DNA of 64,000 bases, from the NCBI RefSeq assembly GCF_000379685.1, contig NZ_KB903292.1, positions 124,001 to 188,000 on the forward strand, written 5' to 3'. The stretch is from Catelliglobosispora koreensis DSM 44566. Lineage in GTDB: Bacteria > Actinomycetota > Actinomycetes > Mycobacteriales > Micromonosporaceae. The position numbers and the translations under genes are program-made. Shown here in pieces: positions 26,317 to 35,585 of the stretch. The notes beneath the pieces were generated by a model. That model searched no databases. It was not told the origin of the DNA and worked only from the letters and a program-made list of their open reading frames with translations. Position 1 is the stretch's first letter, and the number at the start of each line of letters is the position of its first letter.

Positions 26317-26346
26317 TAAGGCGAAGATGGGGACGTGGACCTCGCC

Positions 26347-27333
26347 ATGCATATCAGTAACGGGATCATCAACGGGCCCGTCTCCCTCGTGTACGCAGCG
26401 CTGGCAGTGATCCTGCTGGCGGTTTGCCTGCAGCGTTCGCGCCAGGATCTTTCTGACCGGCTGGCCCCGATGGCTGGGCTGGTGGCCGCGTTCATCTTCG
26501 CGGCGCAGATGCTGAACTTCCCGGTGCTTTCCGGGGTCAGTGGTCATTTGCTGGGTGGTGCGCTCGCGGCGACGCTCGTCGGGCCGTGGGTGGGTGCGCT
26601 GTGCGTGGCCGTGGTGCTGATCGTTCAGTCCCTGGTGTTCGCCGACGGAGGTGTGCTCGCGCTTGGCCTCAATATCTCCAACATGGCCCTGCTCGGCACA
26701 GCGGTGGGCTACCTGGTCGTGATTGGACTGATGAAGCTCCTGCCGCGCACCGCTTTTGGCGTGGGCGCGGCCGTGTTCATCGCCTCGGTGGTGAGCGTTT
26801 TGCTTGCCAGCCAAGGGTTCGTCTTGCAATACATGCTGGGCGGCAGCGTGCCGTTGACGTTGAGCTACGGCGAGATCGCCGGTGTGCTCGCGGGAGTGCA
26901 CGTGCTTATAGGCATCGGTGAAGGCCTGATCGCGGCGCTCGCCGTTATCGCGGTGGCGAAGGTGCGGCCCGACCTGGTTTACGCCTTGCGCGGCCAGCGA
27001 CTGGAAACCGAAGTGCGGCGCAGCCCGAAGCCGGTCATCATCGCCGGCCTGCTGACCGCGCTCGTGCTCGCCGGCGGCATCAGCTACTTCGCGTCCGGCT
27101 CACCAGATGGTCTCGACCACACCGCGCAGATCGGCTGCGAGGAAGACGGTTCCGGGACGTGTATGGCGTCCGGCGAAAAGGATCACGAATTGGCCGGCAG
27201 CATCCTCGGGGACTACAGCTGGAACGGGATAGACGGCACAACCGGTGTCGCGGGCGCGATCGGTGTCGTGGTGACTTTCGCCGTCGGGCTCGCCATCTTC
27301 TGGGTGGTCCGCCGCCGGAGAGTGCGGGCCTGA
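26347..27333 (+). CDS. CbiM/NikM-type ECF metal transporter substrate component with C-terminal PDGLE domain
   Basis: A 328-residue membrane protein that binds Co2+ or Ni2+ and forms the core of an energy-coupling-factor importer. I start at ATG 26347 because in CbiM/NikM the mature N terminus Met-His (here MHISNGI) ligates the metal; a GTG at 26335 would bury it. The CbiM domain has SGHLLGGALAATLVGPW. The C-terminal part carries PDGLDHTA and a final helix, the PDGLE/CbiN-like domain fused here. Metal choice is not readable, but the upstream Nur-like box favours nickel. Confidence 0.88.
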   Translation: MHISNGIINGPVSLVYAALAVILLAVCLQRSRQDLSDRLAPMAGLVAAFIFAAQMLNFPVLSGVSGHLLGGALAATLVGPWVGALCVAVVLIVQSLVFADGGVLALGLNISNMALLGTAVGYLVVIGLMKLLPRTAFGVGAAVFIASVVSVLLASQGFVLQYMLGGSVPLTLSYGEIAGVLAGVHVLIGIGEGLIAALAVIAVAKVRPDLVYALRGQRLETEVRRSPKPVIIAGLLTALVLAGGISYFASGSPDGLDHTAQIGCEEDGSGTCMASGEKDHELAGSILGDYSWNGIDGTTGVAGAIGVVVTFAVGLAIFWVVRRRRVRA

Positions 27334-27334
27334 C

Positions 27335-28102
27335 ATGGGCGCCGGGCATGCCCACGCGATGTATGTGCATCAGCACTCACTGGTGCACCATCTCGCCCCT
27401 GAGGTGAAAATCGCTGCGGCACTTGCCTTTACGGTCGTCGTCGTGGCTACGCCCCGGGAACGGGTCGCCGTTTTCGGGGCATACGCCGTCATCATTCTCG
27501 CGCTGGCGGTGCTCTCCCGGATTCCCGCGCTATGGCTGGCGAAACGGTGTCTCATCGAGTTGCCTTTCGTGGCAACGGCTTTGCTGCTGCCGTTCTTCGC
27601 CGCCGGGCCGAAGACCACGGTGCTCGGGATGAGCCTTGCCGTCGAAGGACTTTGGGGCGGCTGGAACATCCTCATCAAAGGCACACTGGGGGTACTGATC
27701 GCGCTCACACTGGCCGCGACCACGTTGCCGAGAGACCTGCTCGTCGGGCTCGACCGGCTCAAAGCGCCCCAGGCGATCACACAGATCGCGATGTTCATGT
27801 TGCGCTACCTGGAAGTGCTCGCCGACGAAGCGCGGCGCATGCGCATCGCCCGGCTGTCGCGTTTGGACGATCCACGGTTCCTGTGGCAGGTAAAGGGTTT
27901 CGCGACAGGGCTGGGTTCGCTGTTCATCCGCTCCTACGAGCGCGGTGAACGGGTGTTCCTCGCCATGCGGTCGCGCGGCTACACCGGCCGGCTCCCGGCG
28001 GCGCTGCACGCCGAAACCTTAGGCAGCGCAAGGCAGTGGGCGGCCGGTGCGATCGTGCCGGTTCTGGCCGCCGCCATTCTTATCATTTGGGGGTACGCGT
28101 GA
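27335..28102 (+). CDS. CbiQ-type ECF transporter T component
   Basis: A 255-residue membrane protein coupling the ATPase to the CbiM component. It has several hydrophobic helices and the coupling-helix signatures with Ala-Arg-Gly-like segments (RRMRIARLSRLD and LAMRSRGYTGRLP) typical of T components. It begins one base after the CbiM stop and overlaps the ATPase gene by four bases. Confidence 0.9.
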   Translation: MGAGHAHAMYVHQHSLVHHLAPEVKIAAALAFTVVVVATPRERVAVFGAYAVIILALAVLSRIPALWLAKRCLIELPFVATALLLPFFAAGPKTTVLGMSLAVEGLWGGWNILIKGTLGVLIALTLAATTLPRDLLVGLDRLKAPQAITQIAMFMLRYLEVLADEARRMRIARLSRLDDPRFLWQVKGFATGLGSLFIRSYERGERVFLAMRSRGYTGRLPAALHAETLGSARQWAAGAIVPVLAAAILIIWGYA

Positions 28103-28863
28103 CGAGTCTCGATATCACGGATCTTCATTACAGCTATCCCGACGGTCATCAGGCCCTGCACGGGGTGAACCTGAGCGTCAGCGAAGGTGAGCGGGTCGCG
28201 CTCCTCGGCCCCAATGGAGCCGGCAAGACGACCCTCGTGCTGCACCTTAACGGCATCCTCCCGGCGCCGAATATGCCTGGCGCACAAGGCTCTGTGACCG
28301 TCGGCGGCCTCAAGGCTGACCCCCGGGACAGGGCCGCGTTAGCGGAGATCCGCCGCCGCGTGGGGCTTGTCTTCCAGGACCCTGACGATCAGCTGTTCCT
28401 GCCAACGGTCCGTGAAGACGTGGCGTTTGGGCCGGCAAACTTGGGGCTCAAAGGCGCTGAACTCGACGCTCGCGTCGACGATGCGCTCGCATGGGTCGGC
28501 ATGACGGAGGTCAAAGACCGCGCGCCGCATCACCTTTCGCTCGGACAACGGCGGCGGGTCGCTGTGGCAACTGTGCTCGCCATGGATCCACAACTGCTCG
28601 TCCTCGACGAGCCATCGTCCAATCTGGACCCCCAGGCGCGGCGGGAGCTAGCCGAGATCCTGCTGAACTTGCCGGTCACCATGCTGATGGTCACGCACGA
28701 CCTCCCGTACGCCCTACAGCTCTGTGAACGTTCCGTCATCCTCGACGAAGGCCGCATCGCCGCCGACGGCCCGACCCGGGAAATCCTTTCCGACACAGCA
28801 CTTTTGGCCAAGCACCGCCTCGAACTCCCCTTCGGCTTCACCCCACTCGCCACCACCCCCTAA
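28099..28863 (+). CDS. CbiO-type ECF transporter ATPase
   Basis: A 254-residue ABC ATPase from GTG 28099 (GTGA overlap with the T component). Walker A is GPNGAGKTTL, the Q-loop is VFQDPDDQLFLPTV, the signature is LSLGQRRR, Walker B is LLVLDEPSSNLD and the H-loop is VTHDL. It completes a CbiMQO/NikMQO cobalt or nickel importer with only one ATPase gene. Confidence 0.93.
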   Translation: MTSLDITDLHYSYPDGHQALHGVNLSVSEGERVALLGPNGAGKTTLVLHLNGILPAPNMPGAQGSVTVGGLKADPRDRAALAEIRRRVGLVFQDPDDQLFLPTVREDVAFGPANLGLKGAELDARVDDALAWVGMTEVKDRAPHHLSLGQRRRVAVATVLAMDPQLLVLDEPSSNLDPQARRELAEILLNLPVTMLMVTHDLPYALQLCERSVILDEGRIAADGPTREILSDTALLAKHRLELPFGFTPLATTP

Positions 28864-29065: not shown

Positions 29066-30166
29066 CTAGGTGGCGGTGCCTGGTGCTGGGTCGTGTGGCA
29101 CCGGGTCGTGGGGCACCGGGTCGTGGTGGGGCGCGGGGTCGACGATGGGTGCGGTGCCGCGTAGGCGGAGCATGGAGGCGATCGCGCTTCCGCCGGCGAG
29201 GATGATGATGGCGCACACGAGAACGCGGCCCGTCGCGGCGCTCCACGGCAGCGGGATGATGGAGCGGTGGAACGCGGCAGCGCTTGCCATGCCAGCGAAT
29301 AGGGCGGCGGCGCCACCGCCGAGCGCCATCGCGAAATCAGCGTCACCGCGACGTTTGACCAACGCGTAGACGCCCGCCGCGATAGCGGCTAGCGAGGTGA
29401 CTGTCGTCCACAGCTGCGCCGAGAACATCTGCCCCAGCAACGGCCAGAACGTGAAGTAGCCCGCATCCCATTCGCGGCCAACGACATAGACGAGCCCGAG
29501 CACACCCGCCGCGATGGTGATGAACGCCCGCAACGGTTTCAGGGGACCGATCAAGCCGATCAGGCCAACCGCCACGGCACCGCCGATGGCTATAAGCCAC
29601 CAGATCGCGGGCGCTGGAGCTGGTACCCACTCCAATGTTCCTTTGATCTCATGGGCTGTCGCCCCCACGCGGACCGGGACCACCCAGTCACGCAGGTGGT
29701 GGGGCTGATCAGGGGCGGCAAGAACCGAAGGTGGCTCCGTGACCGAGGTCCAAATCGCACGCTGGTCGTGCCAGCGGTACAACGGCTCGTCGCTCACCTT
29801 GTTCCACGAGGGCGGCAGCGTGGGGTCAGCGTGCGCCGGGGGATCGACGTGAAGGATCGTGATATTGAGATATGTCGCTGGAGAGTGGATGTTCTCATAC
29901 ACGCCGTCGGGCCGGATCTCCAGATACGGCTCGTTTTGGTAACCCAGCACCTCGACCGGCTCGGTGCCGCGATTGGTCAGCTGAAGCCGCGCGCCCGCCT
30001 CGATGGTGATGATCTCGACGCCTGACAGCGGGGGTAGCGAGGTGATTGTCGAGCGGTAGTTCGTCGCGTCAGGCGCGTCAGCACCGTGCGCGAGGGCGGG
30101 CGAGCCGGTCGTGAAAAGCAGGGTGAGCACCGTGCCGAGCACGGCGCCCACCTTTCGCATCAGCAT
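29066..30166 (-). CDS. Exported multi-pass membrane protein with His-Asp-Pro tail
   Basis: A 366-residue protein. It has a signal peptide (TLLFTTGSPALA-H), an extracytoplasmic beta-rich domain of about 160 residues (ARLQLTNRGTEPVEVLGYQN), then five hydrophobic helices and a C-terminal tail made of repeated HDPVP units. I know no named family. It is the last gene behind the sigma factor, MauE-like and DsbA-like genes, and its partners suggest a role in copper or thiol handling. The His-rich tail could bind metal, which is only inference. Starts at 30166 and 30160 are both possible. Confidence 0.7.
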   Translation of the reverse strand: MLMRKVGAVLGTVLTLLFTTGSPALAHGADAPDATNYRSTITSLPPLSGVEIITIEAGARLQLTNRGTEPVEVLGYQNEPYLEIRPDGVYENIHSPATYLNITILHVDPPAHADPTLPPSWNKVSDEPLYRWHDQRAIWTSVTEPPSVLAAPDQPHHLRDWVVPVRVGATAHEIKGTLEWVPAPAPAIWWLIAIGGAVAVGLIGLIGPLKPLRAFITIAAGVLGLVYVVGREWDAGYFTFWPLLGQMFSAQLWTTVTSLAAIAAGVYALVKRRGDADFAMALGGGAAALFAGMASAAAFHRSIIPLPWSAATGRVLVCAIIILAGGSAIASMLRLRGTAPIVDPAPHHDPVPHDPVPHDPAPGTAT

Positions 30167-30186
30167 GAGGGCCGATGGTAACGAAC

Positions 30187-30927
30187 CTAGCTGGCAGAAG
30201 GGCTGGGGGAGGAGCTCCCGGTCGCCGCCGCCACAGCCGCGAGGATCGCCGCCGTGTTGCCCTGCACCTTGGTCCCATTGACCAAAACCGTGGGGGTACC
30301 AGTGATGCCCGCGCTCGTGGCGTCATTGCTGACCTTCTTCGCCCACGTCAGGTACCGCCCGCCGGTGACGCATTGCTCGAACGTGTCGTCGAGCCCGACA
30401 CCCCGCCCGATCGCGATCATCTCGGCGTCGCTGAGGCCAGCGGACCCTTCCGCGGGTTGTTGTGCGAATAGAGCGTCACTGAACTCGGTGAACTTTCCGC
30501 CATCGGCAGCGCACGCCGACGCGGCAGAAGAGCGCGTCGAGTACTTGGTGGTGGAGAACCGGTCGAGGTAGGCCACAGGGTGTGTCACGAACGAGATCTT
30601 GTTCTCGGCGACGAGCTGCTTGATGACCGCGTCGCTCTCGTCGTGGAACGTCTTGCAGTGCGGGCACATGAAGTCGATGTAATCCTCGACGATCACGGGA
30701 CCCGTGCCGGCCACGATCGCGTTGCCCGAGGCGTTGGCGTTGGCTGGGGTGAAGACTTCGGCCGCCCTATTTGACTGCAGCAGCACCCAAACGATCATTC
30801 CAGCGGTGGCCACGACGATGGCGCCGATGACGCCGCCCCAGATCATGCGTCTGCGCCGCTGCTCCTTGGCGATTTGCTCACGAACCATTCGAGCGGCTGC
30901 CCGGCGGTCATCTTTCTTCTGCGCCAT
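30187..30927 (-). CDS. Membrane-anchored DsbA-like thioredoxin-fold oxidoreductase
   Basis: A 246-residue protein with a highly charged cytoplasmic start, one membrane helix (about 29-51), and an extracytoplasmic DsbA-like domain. The active site is FMCPHCKTFH (CPHC at 88-91) and the cis-Pro loop is GTPTVLVNG. It should form or rearrange disulfides in exported proteins. I start at ATG 30927, which overlaps the MauE-like gene by 20 bases. A low-complexity Ser/Pro tail ends it. Confidence 0.88.
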   Translation of the reverse strand: MAQKKDDRRAAARMVREQIAKEQRRRRMIWGGVIGAIVVATAGMIVWVLLQSNRAAEVFTPANANASGNAIVAGTGPVIVEDYIDFMCPHCKTFHDESDAVIKQLVAENKISFVTHPVAYLDRFSTTKYSTRSSAASACAADGGKFTEFSDALFAQQPAEGSAGLSDAEMIAIGRGVGLDDTFEQCVTGGRYLTWAKKVSNDATSAGITGTPTVLVNGTKVQGNTAAILAAVAAATGSSSPSPSAS

Positions 30928-31435
30928 CACTTTCACTTTCTCCCTCAATATCTACTTTGGAGGAACCTGGTTTCAGCAAGCCGTCGAGGGAGAACCGGCT
31001 GACTGGGTAAATGATCAAAAACACGGCTAGGGCCAGGTAGAAGACATCCCAGAGGATGCTGGGCAGATAGTTGGGCGTCTGCCCCGGCTCGAGAGCGCCG
31101 CCTTTGCTAAAGCAGCCGCAGTCGATGTTCAAGCCACGGGCCCAAGCCGAGGCGATCCCGGAAATGAAGATCACCATGGCGATCGCGCTGAGCCATGCCA
31201 TCAGCCGGGTCGCGATGCCCAGCAGAAGGAACAGTCCAATCGCGATTTCAAGGAAGGGCTGAGCGACGCCGATGATCTCGGCGACGTTGGTGGGCAGCAG
31301 CTCGTAAGCGATGACCGCCCGTTTGTTGGCGTCGAGGTCCTGCGCTTTGAGCAGGCCAGCGACGAGGAAAACGCCAGCTAATCCGAGCCGGACGAGCAGG
31401 CTCAGCCATGGCTGTGTCTTGCCCCAGTTGCGCAT
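30908..31435 (-). CDS. MauE/DoxX-like membrane protein
   Basis: A 175-residue protein with four hydrophobic helices and the motif DCGCFSKGG between helices 3 and 4, a feature of MauE-type proteins that pass electrons to exported thiol proteins. The downstream DsbA-like gene overlaps it, so it is likely the redox partner that recharges that protein. The acidic C terminus has no recognised domain. Confidence 0.82.
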   Translation of the reverse strand: MRNWGKTQPWLSLLVRLGLAGVFLVAGLLKAQDLDANKRAVIAYELLPTNVAEIIGVAQPFLEIAIGLFLLLGIATRLMAWLSAIAMVIFISGIASAWARGLNIDCGCFSKGGALEPGQTPNYLPSILWDVFYLALAVFLIIYPVSRFSLDGLLKPGSSKVDIEGESESDGAEER

Positions 31436-31454
31436 TGCGGTGCTCCTTGTGCGA

Positions 31455-31997
31455 TCAGGCTGCTAACGCAATAACTACGTCAGCGACCAGATCGGCACGT
31501 GCCCTGGCGACTCGGGACCGGATCGTTCCGACCGGTACGCCGAGCGTCTGCGCCGCCTGCTCATAAGTCAGCCCGAGCAACTGGGTCAGGATGAACGACT
31601 CTCGCCGCTCAGGGCTCAGGCGATCGAGCAGTGCGGTCGCGCTGACCTGCCCTGCCGGATCGGGATGGGCGTTAGGCGTGGCAGTCGTGGCGATCCGGTT
31701 TTCCAGCCTTCGCTGTCGCACCACGGTCCGCAGATGATCAGCGCACGTGCGGCGGGCGATCCCGAGCAGCCACGTGCGGGCGCTCGACCGGGCTTCGAAC
31801 TGTGGCAGCGCGCGAAACGCCCTCAGATACGTCTCCTGAGTGAGATCATCAGCCGTTGACGTATCGACCAGCGCCGCTGCGAATCGCCACACCTCGGCTT
31901 GCGTCAGCCGGACAAAGGCCGCCTGAGCTGCGGGATCCCCGTACTTGGCGGCCAGCGCCCAGTGCGTGGGCGCGTCAAGCTCGGCGGGCGGGGTCAC
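31455..31997 (-). CDS. ECF-family RNA polymerase sigma factor
   Basis: A 180-residue sigma-70-family factor with region 2 (TADDLTQETYLRAFRALPQF, about 45-64) and region 4 (LGLTYEQAAQTLGVPVGTIR, HTH). I start at GTG 31997, since upstream in-frame codons would overlap the divergent promoter region and look non-coding. It is divergent from a zinc-finger protein that is probably its anti-sigma factor, and leads an operon with MauE-like and DsbA-like genes, so it probably responds to envelope metal or thiol stress. Confidence 0.9.
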   Translation of the reverse strand: MTPPAELDAPTHWALAAKYGDPAAQAAFVRLTQAEVWRFAAALVDTSTADDLTQETYLRAFRALPQFEARSSARTWLLGIARRTCADHLRTVVRQRRLENRIATTATPNAHPDPAGQVSATALLDRLSPERRESFILTQLLGLTYEQAAQTLGVPVGTIRSRVARARADLVADVVIALAA

Positions 31998-32068
31998 GGT
32001 TGGCAAGCCTAAATCGTCGCGGGTGCTCCGCGCACTTCGGCCGGCTCGCGTGTCGCACCTCACCCCGG

Positions 32069-32097
32069 GAACTAATCTCGCGTCTGGAGCGACTACC
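32069..32097 (+). promoter_or_regulatory. ECF-type promoter of the anti-sigma/copper operon
   Basis: GGGAAC at 32069-32074 is followed after 17 bases by CGACTA (32092-32097), the GGAAC/CGNC pattern of ECF promoters. The ATG at 32103 is about where transcription would begin, so the mRNA may be leaderless. This supports control of the operon by the divergent sigma factor. Confidence 0.5.
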
Positions 32098-32102
32098 CGT
32101 GC

Positions 32103-32717
32103 ATGACTGGCTGTGAACGGATACGTGTGGCGCTTTCGGCGCGCATGGACGGGGAAGATCCCGGTCTGGGCGGGCTCGATGATCACTTAGCCTCGTGTGC
32201 TGACTGCCGCGCGTGGCTGGCGACCGCATCACAGGTCACGCGGGCCGTGCGGGTCCAGGCTGTTGAGGTCCCGGATCTGACCGCCCGCATCCTCGCCGCC
32301 GTGCACACGGACCAGTCCCAATCACACAAAGCCCGGGCCTCCTCCCGCCGCCGCATCCTGCAGATCGCGCTGGCGATCTCCGCCGCCGTTCAGCTGGCGC
32401 TGGCGATCCCGGCACTGTTTGGCGGGCCTGACGTGCACATCAGCCGCGAAGCGGCCTCCTTCGATATCGCGCTCGCGGTCGGTTTCGCCCTGGCCGCTTG
32501 GCAGCCGGGGCGCGCTCGCGCCTTCGTGCCGGTGGCGTTCGTGCTCGCGGGCTGTCTCACCATTACGAGCGCCTTCGATATCGCGGGCGGGATGACGCTT
32601 TTCGCGCACGAAGTCACGCACGTGGCCGCGCTCGCGCAGGCGTTCATCCTGCTGGCACTGTCACGAGGGTCCGCTCCCGCGGCCACTCCGCGTCAGCGTC
32701 AGGCTGTTACCCCATGA
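32103..32717 (+). CDS. Zinc-finger putative anti-sigma factor
   Basis: A 204-residue membrane protein with an N-terminal zf-HC2 motif (DDHLASCADCRAWL, the HxxxCxxC zinc anti-sigma pattern at about 26-34) and four hydrophobic helices from residue 80 on (LQIALAISAAVQLALAIPAL). Genes of this kind sit beside an ECF sigma factor and copper genes in actinobacteria. I infer that it sequesters the divergent sigma factor, releasing it on metal or thiol stress. It precedes the CopC-CopD gene. Confidence 0.8.
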   Translation: MTGCERIRVALSARMDGEDPGLGGLDDHLASCADCRAWLATASQVTRAVRVQAVEVPDLTARILAAVHTDQSQSHKARASSRRRILQIALAISAAVQLALAIPALFGGPDVHISREAASFDIALAVGFALAAWQPGRARAFVPVAFVLAGCLTITSAFDIAGGMTLFAHEVTHVAALAQAFILLALSRGSAPAATPRQRQAVTP

Positions 32718-32821
32718 CGCGCCGCCTCTCGTGCGGTCGGAGCACCCTTGCGCCGGTCCTCTTCGCGCCAAGGGGCGCGGAGAATTCGGTGACTTCGCGT
32801 CCCATGCGCGAACCTAGGACC

Positions 32822-34843
32822 GTGAAGCCGACCCCGAAGCACGTTGTGCTCGCGTTCGTCGCGGGACTGATCGTCCTGTTTGGATGGCAGGCGCCAGCGC
32901 AGGCGCATGCCGCGCTGACTAAGGCGACCCCCGCCGCGGGGACCATCGTTCAGGAAGCACCGAAGCAGGTGGTCCTGACGTTCAGCGAGCCCGTCGCCCC
33001 GGTTAACGACAAGATCCAGGTGATCGGGCCGGACGGCAAGCGCGCTGACACAGGCAAACCCGAAGCCAACGGCGCCGTGCTGACGATCCGGCTCAAAGAC
33101 AATCTGGTACGCGGGACTTATCTCGTGAGCTTCCGTGTGATCTCAGCGGACAGTCATCCGGTCCCGGGCGGCTACACGTTCTCCTATGGCCAGACTTCGA
33201 CGGCGCCAACGCAAGCGCTGCCCGAGGAAGTCGACAACACGGTGCGCAACCTCATCGGGGTCGCGAAGTACGTGGGTTACGTGGGCCTGACTCTGCTCGT
33301 GGGCGCCGTGTTCGTGCTGACGCTTTTGTGGCCCGCGCGGCTAAACCGCCGTGGCCCGGTAAAACTGATGTGGGCCGGATTCGGCCTCGTGACCCTGTCG
33401 ACCCTCGCGAGCATCTACCTCCAAGTGCCGTACACCAATGGCACCGGACTGTTCGAAGTGGACGGTTCCGCCTTCAGCGACGTCATGGCGAGCCGTTACG
33501 GTATCGCCTTGCTCGTGCGGCTCGCCGTGCTCGCGGTGGCCGCCATCATGGTCCGCCCGCTGATCCAAGGCACGTCGACGGTCGTCGACCGCGTGCTCGT
33601 CGTGATCCTGGCCGGCATCGGCGCCATGACCTGGCCGCTGACCGGCCACCCCGCCGGATCTCCAGTGCCAGCCGTGTCCGTAGTGACCGACGCCCTGCAC
33701 CTGGCAGGCATCGCGGTCTGGCTCGGCGGGCTCGTCATGCTCGTGACGTTCCTCCTGCGCCCCGCCCACCCCACCATCGCCCGCCCCGAGCTCAGCCTCG
33801 CCGGCGGCCAAGCCCTCGGCGCCGAAAGCGAATCTCCCGAAACGCTTGCCGAGTCGAGCACCGCCAATGGCGAAGGCGGAGCGCACCAAACGCTTCCGGC
33901 CGTGTCGAACGCAGCGAGCGGCGCAAGCGAGGTGCGCGAAGCGCTTCCGGAAGAGGCGAACGCGGCGGGTGGCGCAAGCGAAGCGCTCGCGGAAGAGGCG
34001 TACGCGGCCGACGGCGTGCACGAAACGCTTGCCGCCGAGGCGAGCCCGGCCAGCGGCGCAAGCGGAGCGGCCGAAGGTGAGGCGGAAAGCGGTGACGGGG
34101 AAGTCGCGACCGAGGAAGGGCGGGAAAGCCAGGCAGTCAGCACGGGCGCGGCGGGAGGTGGGGCGAATGAGCGTGAAGTCGCGGCGATCCTGCCGGTGTG
34201 GTCGCGGTGGGCGGGCGTTGCCATCGCGGTCGTCGTACTCGCGGGAGTGGTGTCGGCGCTGATTGAGGTGGCGACACTGACCGCGCTCGTGGAGACGACC
34301 TATGGACGGCTGCTGATCGCCAAAGTCGCGCTCGTCGCGGTCATCTTGGGCGCGGCCGTGCTCGCTCGCAAGTCTGTCCACAGTGGACAGGCGCCACGGG
34401 TGCGTAAGTTCGCCGCCATTGAGGTGACCACCGCCGCGGTCGTGCTCGCGGTCACGGCAGCGCTCACCCAGACGACACCCGCCCGCACCGCCGAGGCGAT
34501 CGCCAAAACCCCTCCAGTCCAAGCGGTGTACACGTCCACGTTGGACAGCAGCCTCTTCAAGCTGACCGTCGAGGTCGACCCGGGCAAGGTCGGCAACAAC
34601 CTCGTGCACCTCTACGCCTACGACAAGAACGGGCAGCCGCTCAAAGTCGTGGAGTGGAAGGTGACGGCGGCTTTGCCGAGCGCCGGTGTCGAGCCGATCG
34701 AGGTGCCGATGCTGAAGCTCACGGACAACCACGTCACCGGTTCCCTCACGCTGCCCACGCCTGGCGACTGGCAGCTCAGGTTCACCTTGCGTATCTCAGA
34801 TTTCGATCAAGACACGGTTACCGCAACGGTTCCGGTCAAGTAA
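32822..34843 (+). CDS. CopC-CopD fusion copper-handling membrane protein
   Basis: A 673-residue protein. From GTG 32822 it has a signal peptide ending PAQA-H, whose mature His1 (HAALTKATPAAG) is the CopC Cu(II) ligand. The CopC domain (about 28-120) includes FRVISADSHPVPGGYTF. The CopD membrane domain follows, with helices before and after a long Ala/Glu/Ser-rich repeated insert (about 33805-34175), then a C-terminal YtkA-like beta domain. ATG 32804 and ATG 32714 (overlapping the previous stop as ATGA) are alternative starts; the signal-peptide layout favours 32822. Confidence 0.88.
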   Translation: MKPTPKHVVLAFVAGLIVLFGWQAPAQAHAALTKATPAAGTIVQEAPKQVVLTFSEPVAPVNDKIQVIGPDGKRADTGKPEANGAVLTIRLKDNLVRGTYLVSFRVISADSHPVPGGYTFSYGQTSTAPTQALPEEVDNTVRNLIGVAKYVGYVGLTLLVGAVFVLTLLWPARLNRRGPVKLMWAGFGLVTLSTLASIYLQVPYTNGTGLFEVDGSAFSDVMASRYGIALLVRLAVLAVAAIMVRPLIQGTSTVVDRVLVVILAGIGAMTWPLTGHPAGSPVPAVSVVTDALHLAGIAVWLGGLVMLVTFLLRPAHPTIARPELSLAGGQALGAESESPETLAESSTANGEGGAHQTLPAVSNAASGASEVREALPEEANAAGGASEALAEEAYAADGVHETLAAEASPASGASGAAEGEAESGDGEVATEEGRESQAVSTGAAGGGANEREVAAILPVWSRWAGVAIAVVVLAGVVSALIEVATLTALVETTYGRLLIAKVALVAVILGAAVLARKSVHSGQAPRVRKFAAIEVTTAAVVLAVTAALTQTTPARTAEAIAKTPPVQAVYTSTLDSSLFKLTVEVDPGKVGNNLVHLYAYDKNGQPLKVVEWKVTAALPSAGVEPIEVPMLKLTDNHVTGSLTLPTPGDWQLRFTLRISDFDQDTVTATVPVK

Positions 34844-34856
34844 AGGAGATCCTCCC

Positions 34857-35525
34857 GTGAAGAAGTTCGCTGTCGTGGCGGCGGCCACGATCGCTCTGGT
34901 CGCCGTTGCGGCACCCGCCTCCGCCCACGTCACCGTGAACCCGAAAGAGGCCACGCAAGGCGGCTACGCACGGGTCGCTTTCCGAGTACCAAATGAATCT
35001 GACACCGAAAGCACGACGAAGCTTGAGATTCAGATCCCTGAGGACACTCCGGTGGCCTCGGTTTCGACAATGCCGGTTCCTGGCTGGACGGTGACGACGA
35101 CCAAGCGGACCCTCAGCACGCCGCTTCAGGTGCACGGCAGCCCGGTGACCGAAGTCGTTGGCACGATCACGTGGACGGCGACGCCGGGAGCAGAGGTCAA
35201 GCCCGGTCAGTTCCAGGAGTTTCCGGTGTCGATGGGCCCGATGCCCAAGGCCGACCAGATGATTTTCAAGGCCCTCCAGACGTATTCCGACGGTGCCGTC
35301 GTTCGCTGGATCGATCTGCCCAGCAAGGATGGGTCCGAAGTGGAGCATCCGGCGCCGGTGCTAAAGCTCGTCGCCGCCGCGAACCCGAGTGCCACCCCGG
35401 CCGCGAACGTCGACGTTTCGTTGGGGGAGAAGGAAAACAACACCCTAGGCTGGGCCGGCCTCGCCGCCGGTGTGCTCGCGCTGATCGTCGCCGGATTCGC
35501 ACTGTCGCGCACACGACGGTCATAA
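34857..35525 (+). CDS. ycnI: YcnI-family copper-binding exported protein (DUF1775)
   Basis: A 222-residue exported, membrane-tethered protein. It has a signal peptide (MKKFAVVAAATIALVAVAAP, then ASA-H), an N-terminal HVTVNPKEATQGGYARVAFR block whose His1 is the copper ligand of YcnI, a beta-rich DUF1775 domain, and a final helix with basic end (LSRTRRS). It starts at GTG 34857 behind AAAGGAG, just after the CopC-CopD gene. The two are standard partners in periplasmic copper handling. Confidence 0.93.
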   Translation: MKKFAVVAAATIALVAVAAPASAHVTVNPKEATQGGYARVAFRVPNESDTESTTKLEIQIPEDTPVASVSTMPVPGWTVTTTKRTLSTPLQVHGSPVTEVVGTITWTATPGAEVKPGQFQEFPVSMGPMPKADQMIFKALQTYSDGAVVRWIDLPSKDGSEVEHPAPVLKLVAAANPSATPAANVDVSLGEKENNTLGWAGLAAGVLALIVAGFALSRTRRS

Positions 35526-35533
35526 ATACCGCT

Positions 35534-35577
35534 AACGCAGGCTCTATACCCGCATCTGCGGGCGTAGAGCCTGCGTT
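35534..35577 (+). terminator. Strong hairpin after ycnI
   Basis: Arms AACGCAGGCTCTA and TAGAGCCTGCGTT, with an inner CCGC/GCGG pair, form a long stem around a short loop at 35534-35577. It begins eight bases after the ycnI stop and ends eight bases before the next ATG, so it probably insulates the copper operon from the next gene. Confidence 0.75.
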
Positions 35578-35585
35578 GTCAGGTC

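What the first reader, a model, noticed from the sequence alone, without database searches (positions are those of the whole stretch)
29066..35525. Divergent sigma-factor locus combining copper binding and disulfide formation
Leftwards: ECF sigma factor, MauE-like, DsbA-like (CPHC), membrane protein. Rightwards: zinc-finger putative anti-sigma factor, CopC-CopD, YcnI. A GGGAAC-N17-CGAC promoter feeds the anti-sigma gene, whose ATG is at the predicted transcript start. The layout suggests a sensor circuit coupling envelope copper to thiol oxidation.
Basis: partly seen in the sequence, partly recalled or inferred. Interest (0 to 1): 0.58.

Follow-up and report, generated by a model that had tools for sequence, protein, structure and literature searches.

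The report
Copper-acquisition sigma switch in actinomycetes
This soil actinomycete carries a widely conserved gene switch, a sigma factor paired with a likely membrane-bound partner, that most likely turns on proteins for gathering and placing copper when copper is scarce, and it gives a known but poorly understood mycobacterial regulator a clear copper context and a candidate sensor.

Summary
The locus is real and strongly conserved. The leftward sigma belongs to a clade sister to mycobacterial SigC (known to act in copper starvation) but scores below the curated SigC cut-off. The rightward zf-HC2 protein is a predicted four-helix membrane protein with an intact ZAS zinc motif and a conserved His/Glu/Asp/His set; homologs of it and of SigC occur together in mycobacterial genomes (50 both, 27 neither, 1 zf only, 0 SigC only), often in one reading frame. 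[CGT]GGAAC-N17-CGAC lies before the zf gene in 75 of 80 named relatives. In related genomes the extended motif also precedes CopC/CopD, YcnI, PCuAC, PepSY-TM, MauE and CtaG genes; none of these families appeared among 24 genes after a reversed motif. In 40 of 52 relatives with mauE next to the sigma the same motif precedes mauE, though not in this genome. Best reading: copper scarcity releases the sigma, which switches on extracytoplasmic copper acquisition, with a coupled disulfide arm in many relatives. The sensed signal and sigma/zf binding are inferred. A putative mycobacterial anti-SigC (RscA) is already in print; this is a new variant with a new copper setting.

The parts
29066..30166 (-). 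unknown membrane protein: signal peptide ending AxA then His27, beta-rich ectodomain, then predicted membrane helices
   Evidence: no Pfam/NCBIfam match; A24, A26 and H27 invariant in 44 of 44 aligned rows; AlphaFold pLDDT 91.7, pTM 0.84
30187..30927 (-). DsbA-like thioredoxin-fold protein with N-terminal membrane anchor, CPHC motif (ATG at 30927 inferred)
   Evidence: Thioredoxin_4 E 4e-24, DSBA E 2e-9; sequence; start region
30908..31435 (-). MauE/DoxX-type membrane protein with CxC
   Evidence: MauE E 2e-26; sequence
31455..31997 (-). ECF sigma factor, sister clade of SigC (start inferred)
   Evidence: PRK12535 172 bits and SigC model 156 bits, both under their cut-offs; best solved match M. 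tuberculosis SigC 2o7g E 5e-26; tree
32067..32093 (+). sigma-type promoter GGGAAC-N17-CGAC (TA follows), 9 bases before the zf ATG
   Evidence: site of this kind in 75 of 80 named relatives
32103..32717 (+). candidate anti-sigma factor: ZAS zinc motif (C4, H28, C32, C35) plus four predicted membrane helices with Q97, H112, E116, D159, H173
   Evidence: zf-HC2 21.5 bits; conservation in 68 rows; AlphaFold pLDDT 90.7, pTM 0.64
32804..34843 (+). CopC-CopD fusion; signal peptide AQA then His (start may be GTG 32822)
   Evidence: CopC E 9e-26, CopD E 8e-13; N-terminus
34857..35525 (+). YcnI-type DUF1775 protein; signal peptide ASA then His
   Evidence: DUF1775 E 2e-54; N-terminus
35531..35585 (.). 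strong hairpin after ycnI, probable operon end
   Evidence: folded at -37.7 kcal/mol

Best explanation
A SigC-like ECF sigma is held at the membrane by the divergently encoded ZAS/four-helix protein. While extracytoplasmic copper is sufficient the sigma stays bound; when copper (or its supply to the respiratory oxidase) falls, the membrane domain changes state and lets the sigma go. The sigma then transcribes from GGGAAC-N17-CGAC its own anti-sigma (negative feedback) with CopC-CopD and YcnI, so that Cu(II) is caught outside by histidine-brace proteins and moved inward. The leftward MauE, DsbA-like and His-N-terminal membrane proteins keep partner cysteines in the right redox state, or pass copper, for cuproenzyme assembly. 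Shown here: gene order, promoter conservation and spacing, copper-family genes behind the motif in relatives, sigma kinship, ZAS motif, co-occurrence and frame fusion of the zf family with SigC. Inferred: binding of the two regulators, membrane topology, copper scarcity as signal, the H/E/D/H site as sensor, and the job of the disulfide arm.
For: Promoter before zf in 75 of 80 named relatives, sigma divergent in 73 of 80; spacer N17 in 76 of 80; start codon exactly 9 bases after CGAC in 20 of the 24 rows (of 34) where the script assigned a start. Four loci without a detectable zf keep sigma next to copCD; in three of them copCD itself follows the promoter directly, one with only a short zf remnant. 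Of 58 genes behind the extended motif: CopC 13, CopD 9, zf-HC2 8, PepSY_TM 7, DUF1775 4, PCuAC 4, MauE 2, CtaG 1; none of these in 24 control genes. A second CopC gene of this genome has GGGAAC-N18-CGAC 8 bases before an ATG (another ATG lies at 2). Window clade sister to a clade holding 39 mycobacterial SigC rows (96/93). Zf and SigC homologs: 50 genomes both, 27 neither, 1 zf only, 0 SigC only; 23 of 30 mycobacterial zf loci have zf and sigma in one frame. Zf and CopC in one frame in L053 and L240. In mycobacteria the motif precedes a PPE gene in 5 of 6 and a P-type-ATPase-like gene in 4 of 4 SigC loci looked at (genes read by eye), the kinds named as SigC targets (ppe1-nrp, ctpB; PMC7924339, passages). 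B. subtilis YcnJ/YcnI serve copper import under limitation (PMC12362106, abstract; PMC13344008, abstract and one section). C. glutamicum sigma-C regulon is activated on copper deprivation (PMC7337898, passages).
Against: No expression or binding data. The motif is not enriched in total: 169 matches against 184 reversed in 61 genomes, so most single matches are chance. This genome shows only two extended matches, one probably a coding coincidence, against 6 reversed, and no PCuAC gene. The window sigma is below the SigC cut-off. Seven of 40 loci have a SigC-like sigma but no zf in the fetched stretch, so linkage to an anti-sigma is not universal; I did not look for it elsewhere in those genomes. 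No mauE promoter in the window's clade. The fold search gave no relative for the zf model, and side-chain geometry of the supposed metal site could not be measured. The ZAS zinc site could itself be redox-active. In 5 of the 80 loci the motif was not found before zf.
Confidence: 0.7

Rival explanations
1. The pair senses failure of the respiratory chain (quinone or oxidase electron flow) rather than copper itself; copper genes are induced because the oxidase needs copper.
For: For C. [quoted passage not shown] The conserved membrane set H112/E116/D159/H173 could bind quinone or heme.
Against: The recognisable genes behind the motif in relatives are mainly copper-trafficking genes; among the 25 families shown of 30, no cytochrome bd or oxidase subunit appears.
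Confidence: 0.2
2. Thiol-redox sensor of the RsrA type: the ZAS cysteines form a disulfide on oxidation and release the sigma; copper matters as an oxidant and the DsbA/MauE genes are the response.
For: Intact ZAS cysteines; weak RsrA-model matches in 5 of 58 downstream proteins; conserved MauE-DsbA arm.
Against: The four conserved ligands look like a complete structural zinc site and no further cysteine is conserved to 80% (C151 reaches 72%); the conserved membrane histidines stay unexplained; the regulon looks like import, not thiol repair.
Confidence: 0.12
3. Copper-excess response: CopCD and YcnI confer resistance.
For: The Pfam name 'Copper resistance protein D'.
Against: No efflux ATPase among the seven genes of the locus; CopCD/YcnI homologs in B. 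subtilis act in acquisition; SigC prevents copper starvation. One HMA protein and mycobacterial P-type-ATPase-like genes do lie behind the motif; ctpB was linked in print to SigC's copper-starvation role.
Confidence: 0.08

Closest known systems
Mycobacterial SigC with putative anti-sigma RscA (I take it to be Rv0093c)
   Same: sister sigma clade, homologous ZAS/four-helix partner with the same conserved residues, same promoter type before PPE and P-type-ATPase-like genes, copper-starvation role in print
   Different: here sigma and zf are separate and divergent and the target operon is CopCD-YcnI, not ppe1-nrp or ctpB; many mycobacteria have one fused frame. PMC7924339 says no anti-SigC has been identified, PMC6917791 names a putative rscA, PMC7563442 reports sigC fused with Rv0093c in the M. 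avium complex (passages). I had no Rv0093c sequence, so that identity is inferred
Corynebacterium glutamicum sigma-C
   Same: ECF sigma tied to copper deprivation and oxidase function (PMC7337898, passages)
   Different: the activated target described there is cydABCD; I did not look for its anti-sigma factor
Bacillus subtilis ycnKJI
   Same: CopC-CopD and YcnI proteins with Cu(II) sites
   Different: control by the repressor YcnK there (PMC8424229, abstract start in the listing), by an ECF sigma here; abstracts of PMC12362106 and PMC13344008 read
CorE of Myxococcus xanthus
   Same: ECF sigma responding to copper
   Different: CorE is controlled by its own C-terminal copper domain (PMC8999054, passages)
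Streptomyces lividans sco operon
   Same: CopC-CopD protein and PCuAC-like protein beside Sco, in oxidase assembly
   Different: no sigma or anti-sigma is in the gene list shown (PMC3603459, passages)

Membership tests
SigC (NCBIfam NF007231) | score over curated cut-off of 219 bits | tested here: not met
   156 bits
SigC (NCBIfam NF007231) | branches with mycobacterial SigC rather than with other ECF sigmas | tested here: met
   112 SigC-like rows (chosen by similarity) apart from 9 own-genome ECFs (99/95), window clade sister to the SigC clade (96/93), with long-branch warnings
ECF36 | match to the ECF classification model | not testable with these tools
   model not held; the paper I take to be the classification paper was not held
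ZAS anti-sigma factor | HxxxCxxC with an upstream fourth ligand | tested here: met
   C4, H28, C32, C35 in 68 of 68 rows; definition recalled
ZAS anti-sigma factor | Pfam zf-HC2 gathering score of 22.2 | tested here: not met
   21.5 bits, E 2.5e-4
ZAS anti-sigma factor | binds and inhibits its sigma | not testable with these tools
   indirect only: divergent linkage, co-occurrence, frame fusion
CopC / CopD | Pfam gathering scores | tested here: met
   91.2 over 23.3 and 49.2 over 32.1
YcnI (DUF1775) | Pfam gathering score and His after the signal peptide | tested here: met
   184 bits over 25; ASA-His (cleavage inferred)
MauE and DsbA-like thioredoxin | Pfam gathering scores | tested here: met
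   93.5 over 27; 86 over 23.2

The most novel reading that the evidence does not exclude
The ZAS/four-helix protein is a direct extracytoplasmic copper sensor: H112, E116, D159 and H173 form a copper site at the outer leaflet whose emptying releases a SigC-type sigma. One such family would then explain copper sensing across Micromonosporaceae, Pseudonocardiaceae and mycobacteria, including species where sensor and sigma are one polypeptide. The locus would also add a new AxA-His membrane protein to the histidine-brace copper proteins and tie disulfide chemistry to copper placement.
Probability: 0.35. Interest if true: 0.8.

Novelty: new variant of a known kind. Interest (0 to 1): 0.6.

Why it matters
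How bacteria sense too little copper outside the cytoplasm is poorly known (my own judgement), and PMC7924339 leaves open how copper deficiency is sensed and SigC activity controlled. A conserved, genetically simple pair with a strict promoter, found in soil actinomycetes, makes both questions testable. The same promoter before the MauE-DsbA arm in many relatives suggests that copper supply and disulfide chemistry are managed together during cuproenzyme assembly.

Tried and rejected
Genome-wide motif counting as proof of a regulon: rejected, since GGGAAC-N17-CGAC gave 37 against 49 reversed in this genome and the extended motif 169 against 184 in 61 genomes.

A recurrent match TGGAACCTCAAGCG..CACGACTA in many genomes reads as coding (WNLKRGGHDY by eye; I recall pyruvate dehydrogenase E1, no call named it) and was left out. 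The second extended match in this genome (C10) sits in the 3' end of another reading frame before an unrelated ECF sigma: taken as coincidence. A third apparent zf-CopCD fusion (L242) is a run of N in the assembly.

Fold search of the zf model: no match at E 0.001 or better in the PDB. The unknown membrane protein: same; VIA-align top Z 10.6 to a four-helix copper storage protein, rmsd 2.4 over 100 residues, but plant inhibitors follow within 1, so this is probably a common helical bundle; its ectodomain was barely tested by that list. A promoter before mauE in the window: only a poor match with wrong spacing. PCuAC in this genome: none. I had no coordinates of either model to measure, so clustering of H112/E116/D159/H173 is judged from helix ends only.

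Full report
WHAT IS THERE. The window is part of a 7.69-Mb genome of 44 contigs. The closest named relatives of its zf protein are Allorhizocola, Rhizocola and Catellatospora, so it belongs with the Micromonosporaceae. Leftwards, tightly packed: sigma (GTG 31997 to 31455), MauE, DsbA-like and a membrane protein without any Pfam or NCBIfam match. Rightwards: zf-HC2-like, CopC-CopD, YcnI, then a strong hairpin.

THE SIGMA. It scores 172 bits on PRK12535 and 156 on the SigC model, both under the curated cut-offs, and next 81 on SigY; its best solved relative is M. tuberculosis SigC. A tree of 121 rows, 112 of them chosen by similarity, separates those 112 SigC-like rows from nine other ECF sigmas of this genome (99/95). 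One row (L268) branches first; the rest split into the window's clade (42 rows) and a clade of 69 rows that holds 39 mycobacterial SigC rows (96/93; a few rows are the same gene fetched twice). The program warns of long outgroup branches. I therefore call it SigC-like, not SigC.

THE PROMOTER. In 40 loci from related genomes a site of this kind (looser pattern, spacer 16-18) stands on the zf side of the sigma start in 34 and on the sigma side in none, within the stretch scanned. In the 34 with GGAAC-N17-CGAC the start codon is exactly 9 bases after CGAC in 20 of the 24 rows where the script assigned a start; 10 rows had none assigned. In 80 named loci, which partly repeat the same genomes, the site is within about 80 bases before zf in 75, and the sigma is divergent in 73. 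Spacer 17 occurs in 76 of 80, any other spacer from 10 to 25 in 0 to 2. Seven of the 40 loci have no zf hit. Four of these (L036, L037, L039, L047) keep the sigma beside copCD; in L036, L037 and L039 copCD follows the promoter directly, L037 with a nine-residue zf-like remnant, while L047 has no site there. So copCD looks like the constant target, and the linked zf can be lost. The other three (L061, L063, L065) belong to the SigC clade.

THE REGULON. The extended motif BGGAACY-N16-CGACTA was sought in 61 genomes. Before seeing any gene I picked 60 places from the listing, which was itself cut short, leaving out the recurrent coding match, most sites at the window-type sigma loci and some others; several picked sites lie beside SigC-clade sigmas, which explains the zf-HC2 genes below. 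One search read them. A script chose one downstream frame for 58 sites. For three (L163, L170, L186) I replaced its choice by hand with the frame recognised, which should affect two of the four PCuAC and one of the 13 CopC counts. Pfam: CopC 13, CopD 9, zf-HC2 8, PepSY_TM 7, DUF1775 4, PCuAC 4, HupE_UreJ_2 2, MauE 2, and one each of CtaG, DyP, Thioredoxin_4 and HMA; others look unrelated and may be chance (PaaB, acetyltransferase, nitroreductase, DJ-1 and more). Control: the 30 loci that the tool fetched for the reversed motif gave 24 frames, with none of these copper families; it is smaller and was not hand-picked. Relatives carry 0 to 7 CopC genes each; at 3 to 7 per 5,000 genes, 13 of 58 has a binomial tail of 4e-30 to 2e-25 (the gene number is assumed). 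Total motif counts are not enriched (169 against 184). In this genome the clear target is the zf-copCD-ycnI operon; a second CopC gene with GGGAAC-N18-CGAC just before its start is likely; there is no PCuAC.

THE DISULFIDE ARM. mauE and dsbA are each found in 52 of 80 named loci (up to 8 kb either side). Of 52 with mauE next to the sigma, 40 have NGGAAC-N17-CGAC between them on the mauE strand, mostly with a start codon 8 or 9 bases on. The loci nearest to the window lack it (L191-L197, L200, L202, L228), so here the arm probably shares the sigma transcript. In some more distant loci mauE, dsbA or the membrane gene lie after ycnI or copCD instead (L055, L056, L058, L060, L064). The unknown membrane protein has A24-x-A26-His27 invariant in 44 of 44 rows, so that, if cut there, it starts with His, as CopCD and YcnI of the window would. 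PMC12537917 (passages) uses N-terminal His after a signal peptide to find metalloproteins and names CopC among them. The model shows a beta-rich ectodomain plus membrane helices.

THE ANTI-SIGMA CANDIDATE. In 68 rows C4, D16, E18, H28, C32, C35, Q97, H112 and E116 are invariant, D159 and H173 are in 66. AlphaFold gives a three-helix ZAS part and four long helices, pLDDT 90.7, pTM 0.64; by the helix ends, H112, E116, D159 and H173 lie near one face, the outer one if ZAS is cytoplasmic (inference; no coordinates were available). In 78 genomes of the genus holding the best SigC matches, zf (E 1e-8 or better) and SigC (E 1e-50 or better) are both present in 50, both absent in 27, zf alone in one, SigC alone in none (Fisher 4e-20; genomes are related, so this overstates independence). 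In 23 of 30 zf loci the two are in one open frame; internal starts cannot be excluded. PMC7563442 (passages) reports the fusion of sigC with Rv0093c in the M. avium complex, and PMC6917791 (passages) names a putative anti-SigC, rscA, away from sigC in M. tuberculosis; that both are the zf family seen here is inferred. Two distant loci have zf and CopC in one frame of 837 and 882 residues (L053, L240). In mycobacteria the motif precedes a PPE gene beside the fused gene in L311-L315 but was not found in L310, and a P-type-ATPase-like gene beside sigC in L316-L319, agreeing with published SigC targets ppe1-nrp and ctpB (PMC7924339, passages).

HOW IT WORKS. Shown: kinship, linkage, promoter, feedback layout (the anti-sigma candidate is itself a target), and copper genes behind the motif. 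From the literature: SigC prevents copper starvation, the C. glutamicum sigma-C regulon is activated by copper deprivation, YcnJ/YcnI act in copper import. Inferred: copper scarcity frees the sigma; the membrane site is the sensor; the disulfide arm serves cuproenzyme assembly. Respiratory-chain sensing is the main rival.

NOVELTY. Searches for copper with ECF terms, SigC with copper, ECF36, YcnI with CopC and sigma factor, Rv0093c, DUF1775/CopD/MauE/anti-sigma and SigC with anti-sigma and chalkophore did not, in the listings and passages I saw, describe this locus. The held library lacks most subscription papers, so this is not proof of absence.

Noticed in passing
L335-L359 without L351 and L353 (23 of 30 zf loci): ZAS/four-helix anti-sigma and SigC in one reading frame of 461 residues or more; of six such loci read further, five (L311-L315) have the SigC-type motif and a PPE gene on the other side, L310 not.
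   Followed up: partly
L401 (G247), 14 kb: A mycobacterial genome with the zf protein but no SigC at E 1e-50; no sigma seen within 14 kb.
   Followed up: partly
L402 and L403 (G248): zf homolog and SigC about 1 Mb apart in a small 3.27-Mb genome; the only SigC-type motif in the 12 kb fetched lies about 2 kb from the zf.
   Followed up: no
window 33800-34190: Long Ala/Glu/Gly-rich, repeat-like stretch inside CopCD; I did not check whether relatives have it.
   Followed up: no
L405 (5944), L363 (642), L364 (3061): Small membrane-protein-like genes behind the SigC-type motif in mycobacteria, read by eye, not scanned for families.
   Followed up: no
window 26335-28863: Membrane and ABC genes that look like a CbiM/CbiQ/CbiO nickel or cobalt uptake system (names recalled, only the ABC protein was scanned); an ABC gene of this kind is also near the locus in many relatives.
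   Followed up: no
genomes G009, G010, G017 (L038/L070, L033/L066, L045/L057/L061): These carry both a window-type sigma and SigC-clade paralogs, with a zf partner or copper genes nearby.
   Followed up: partly
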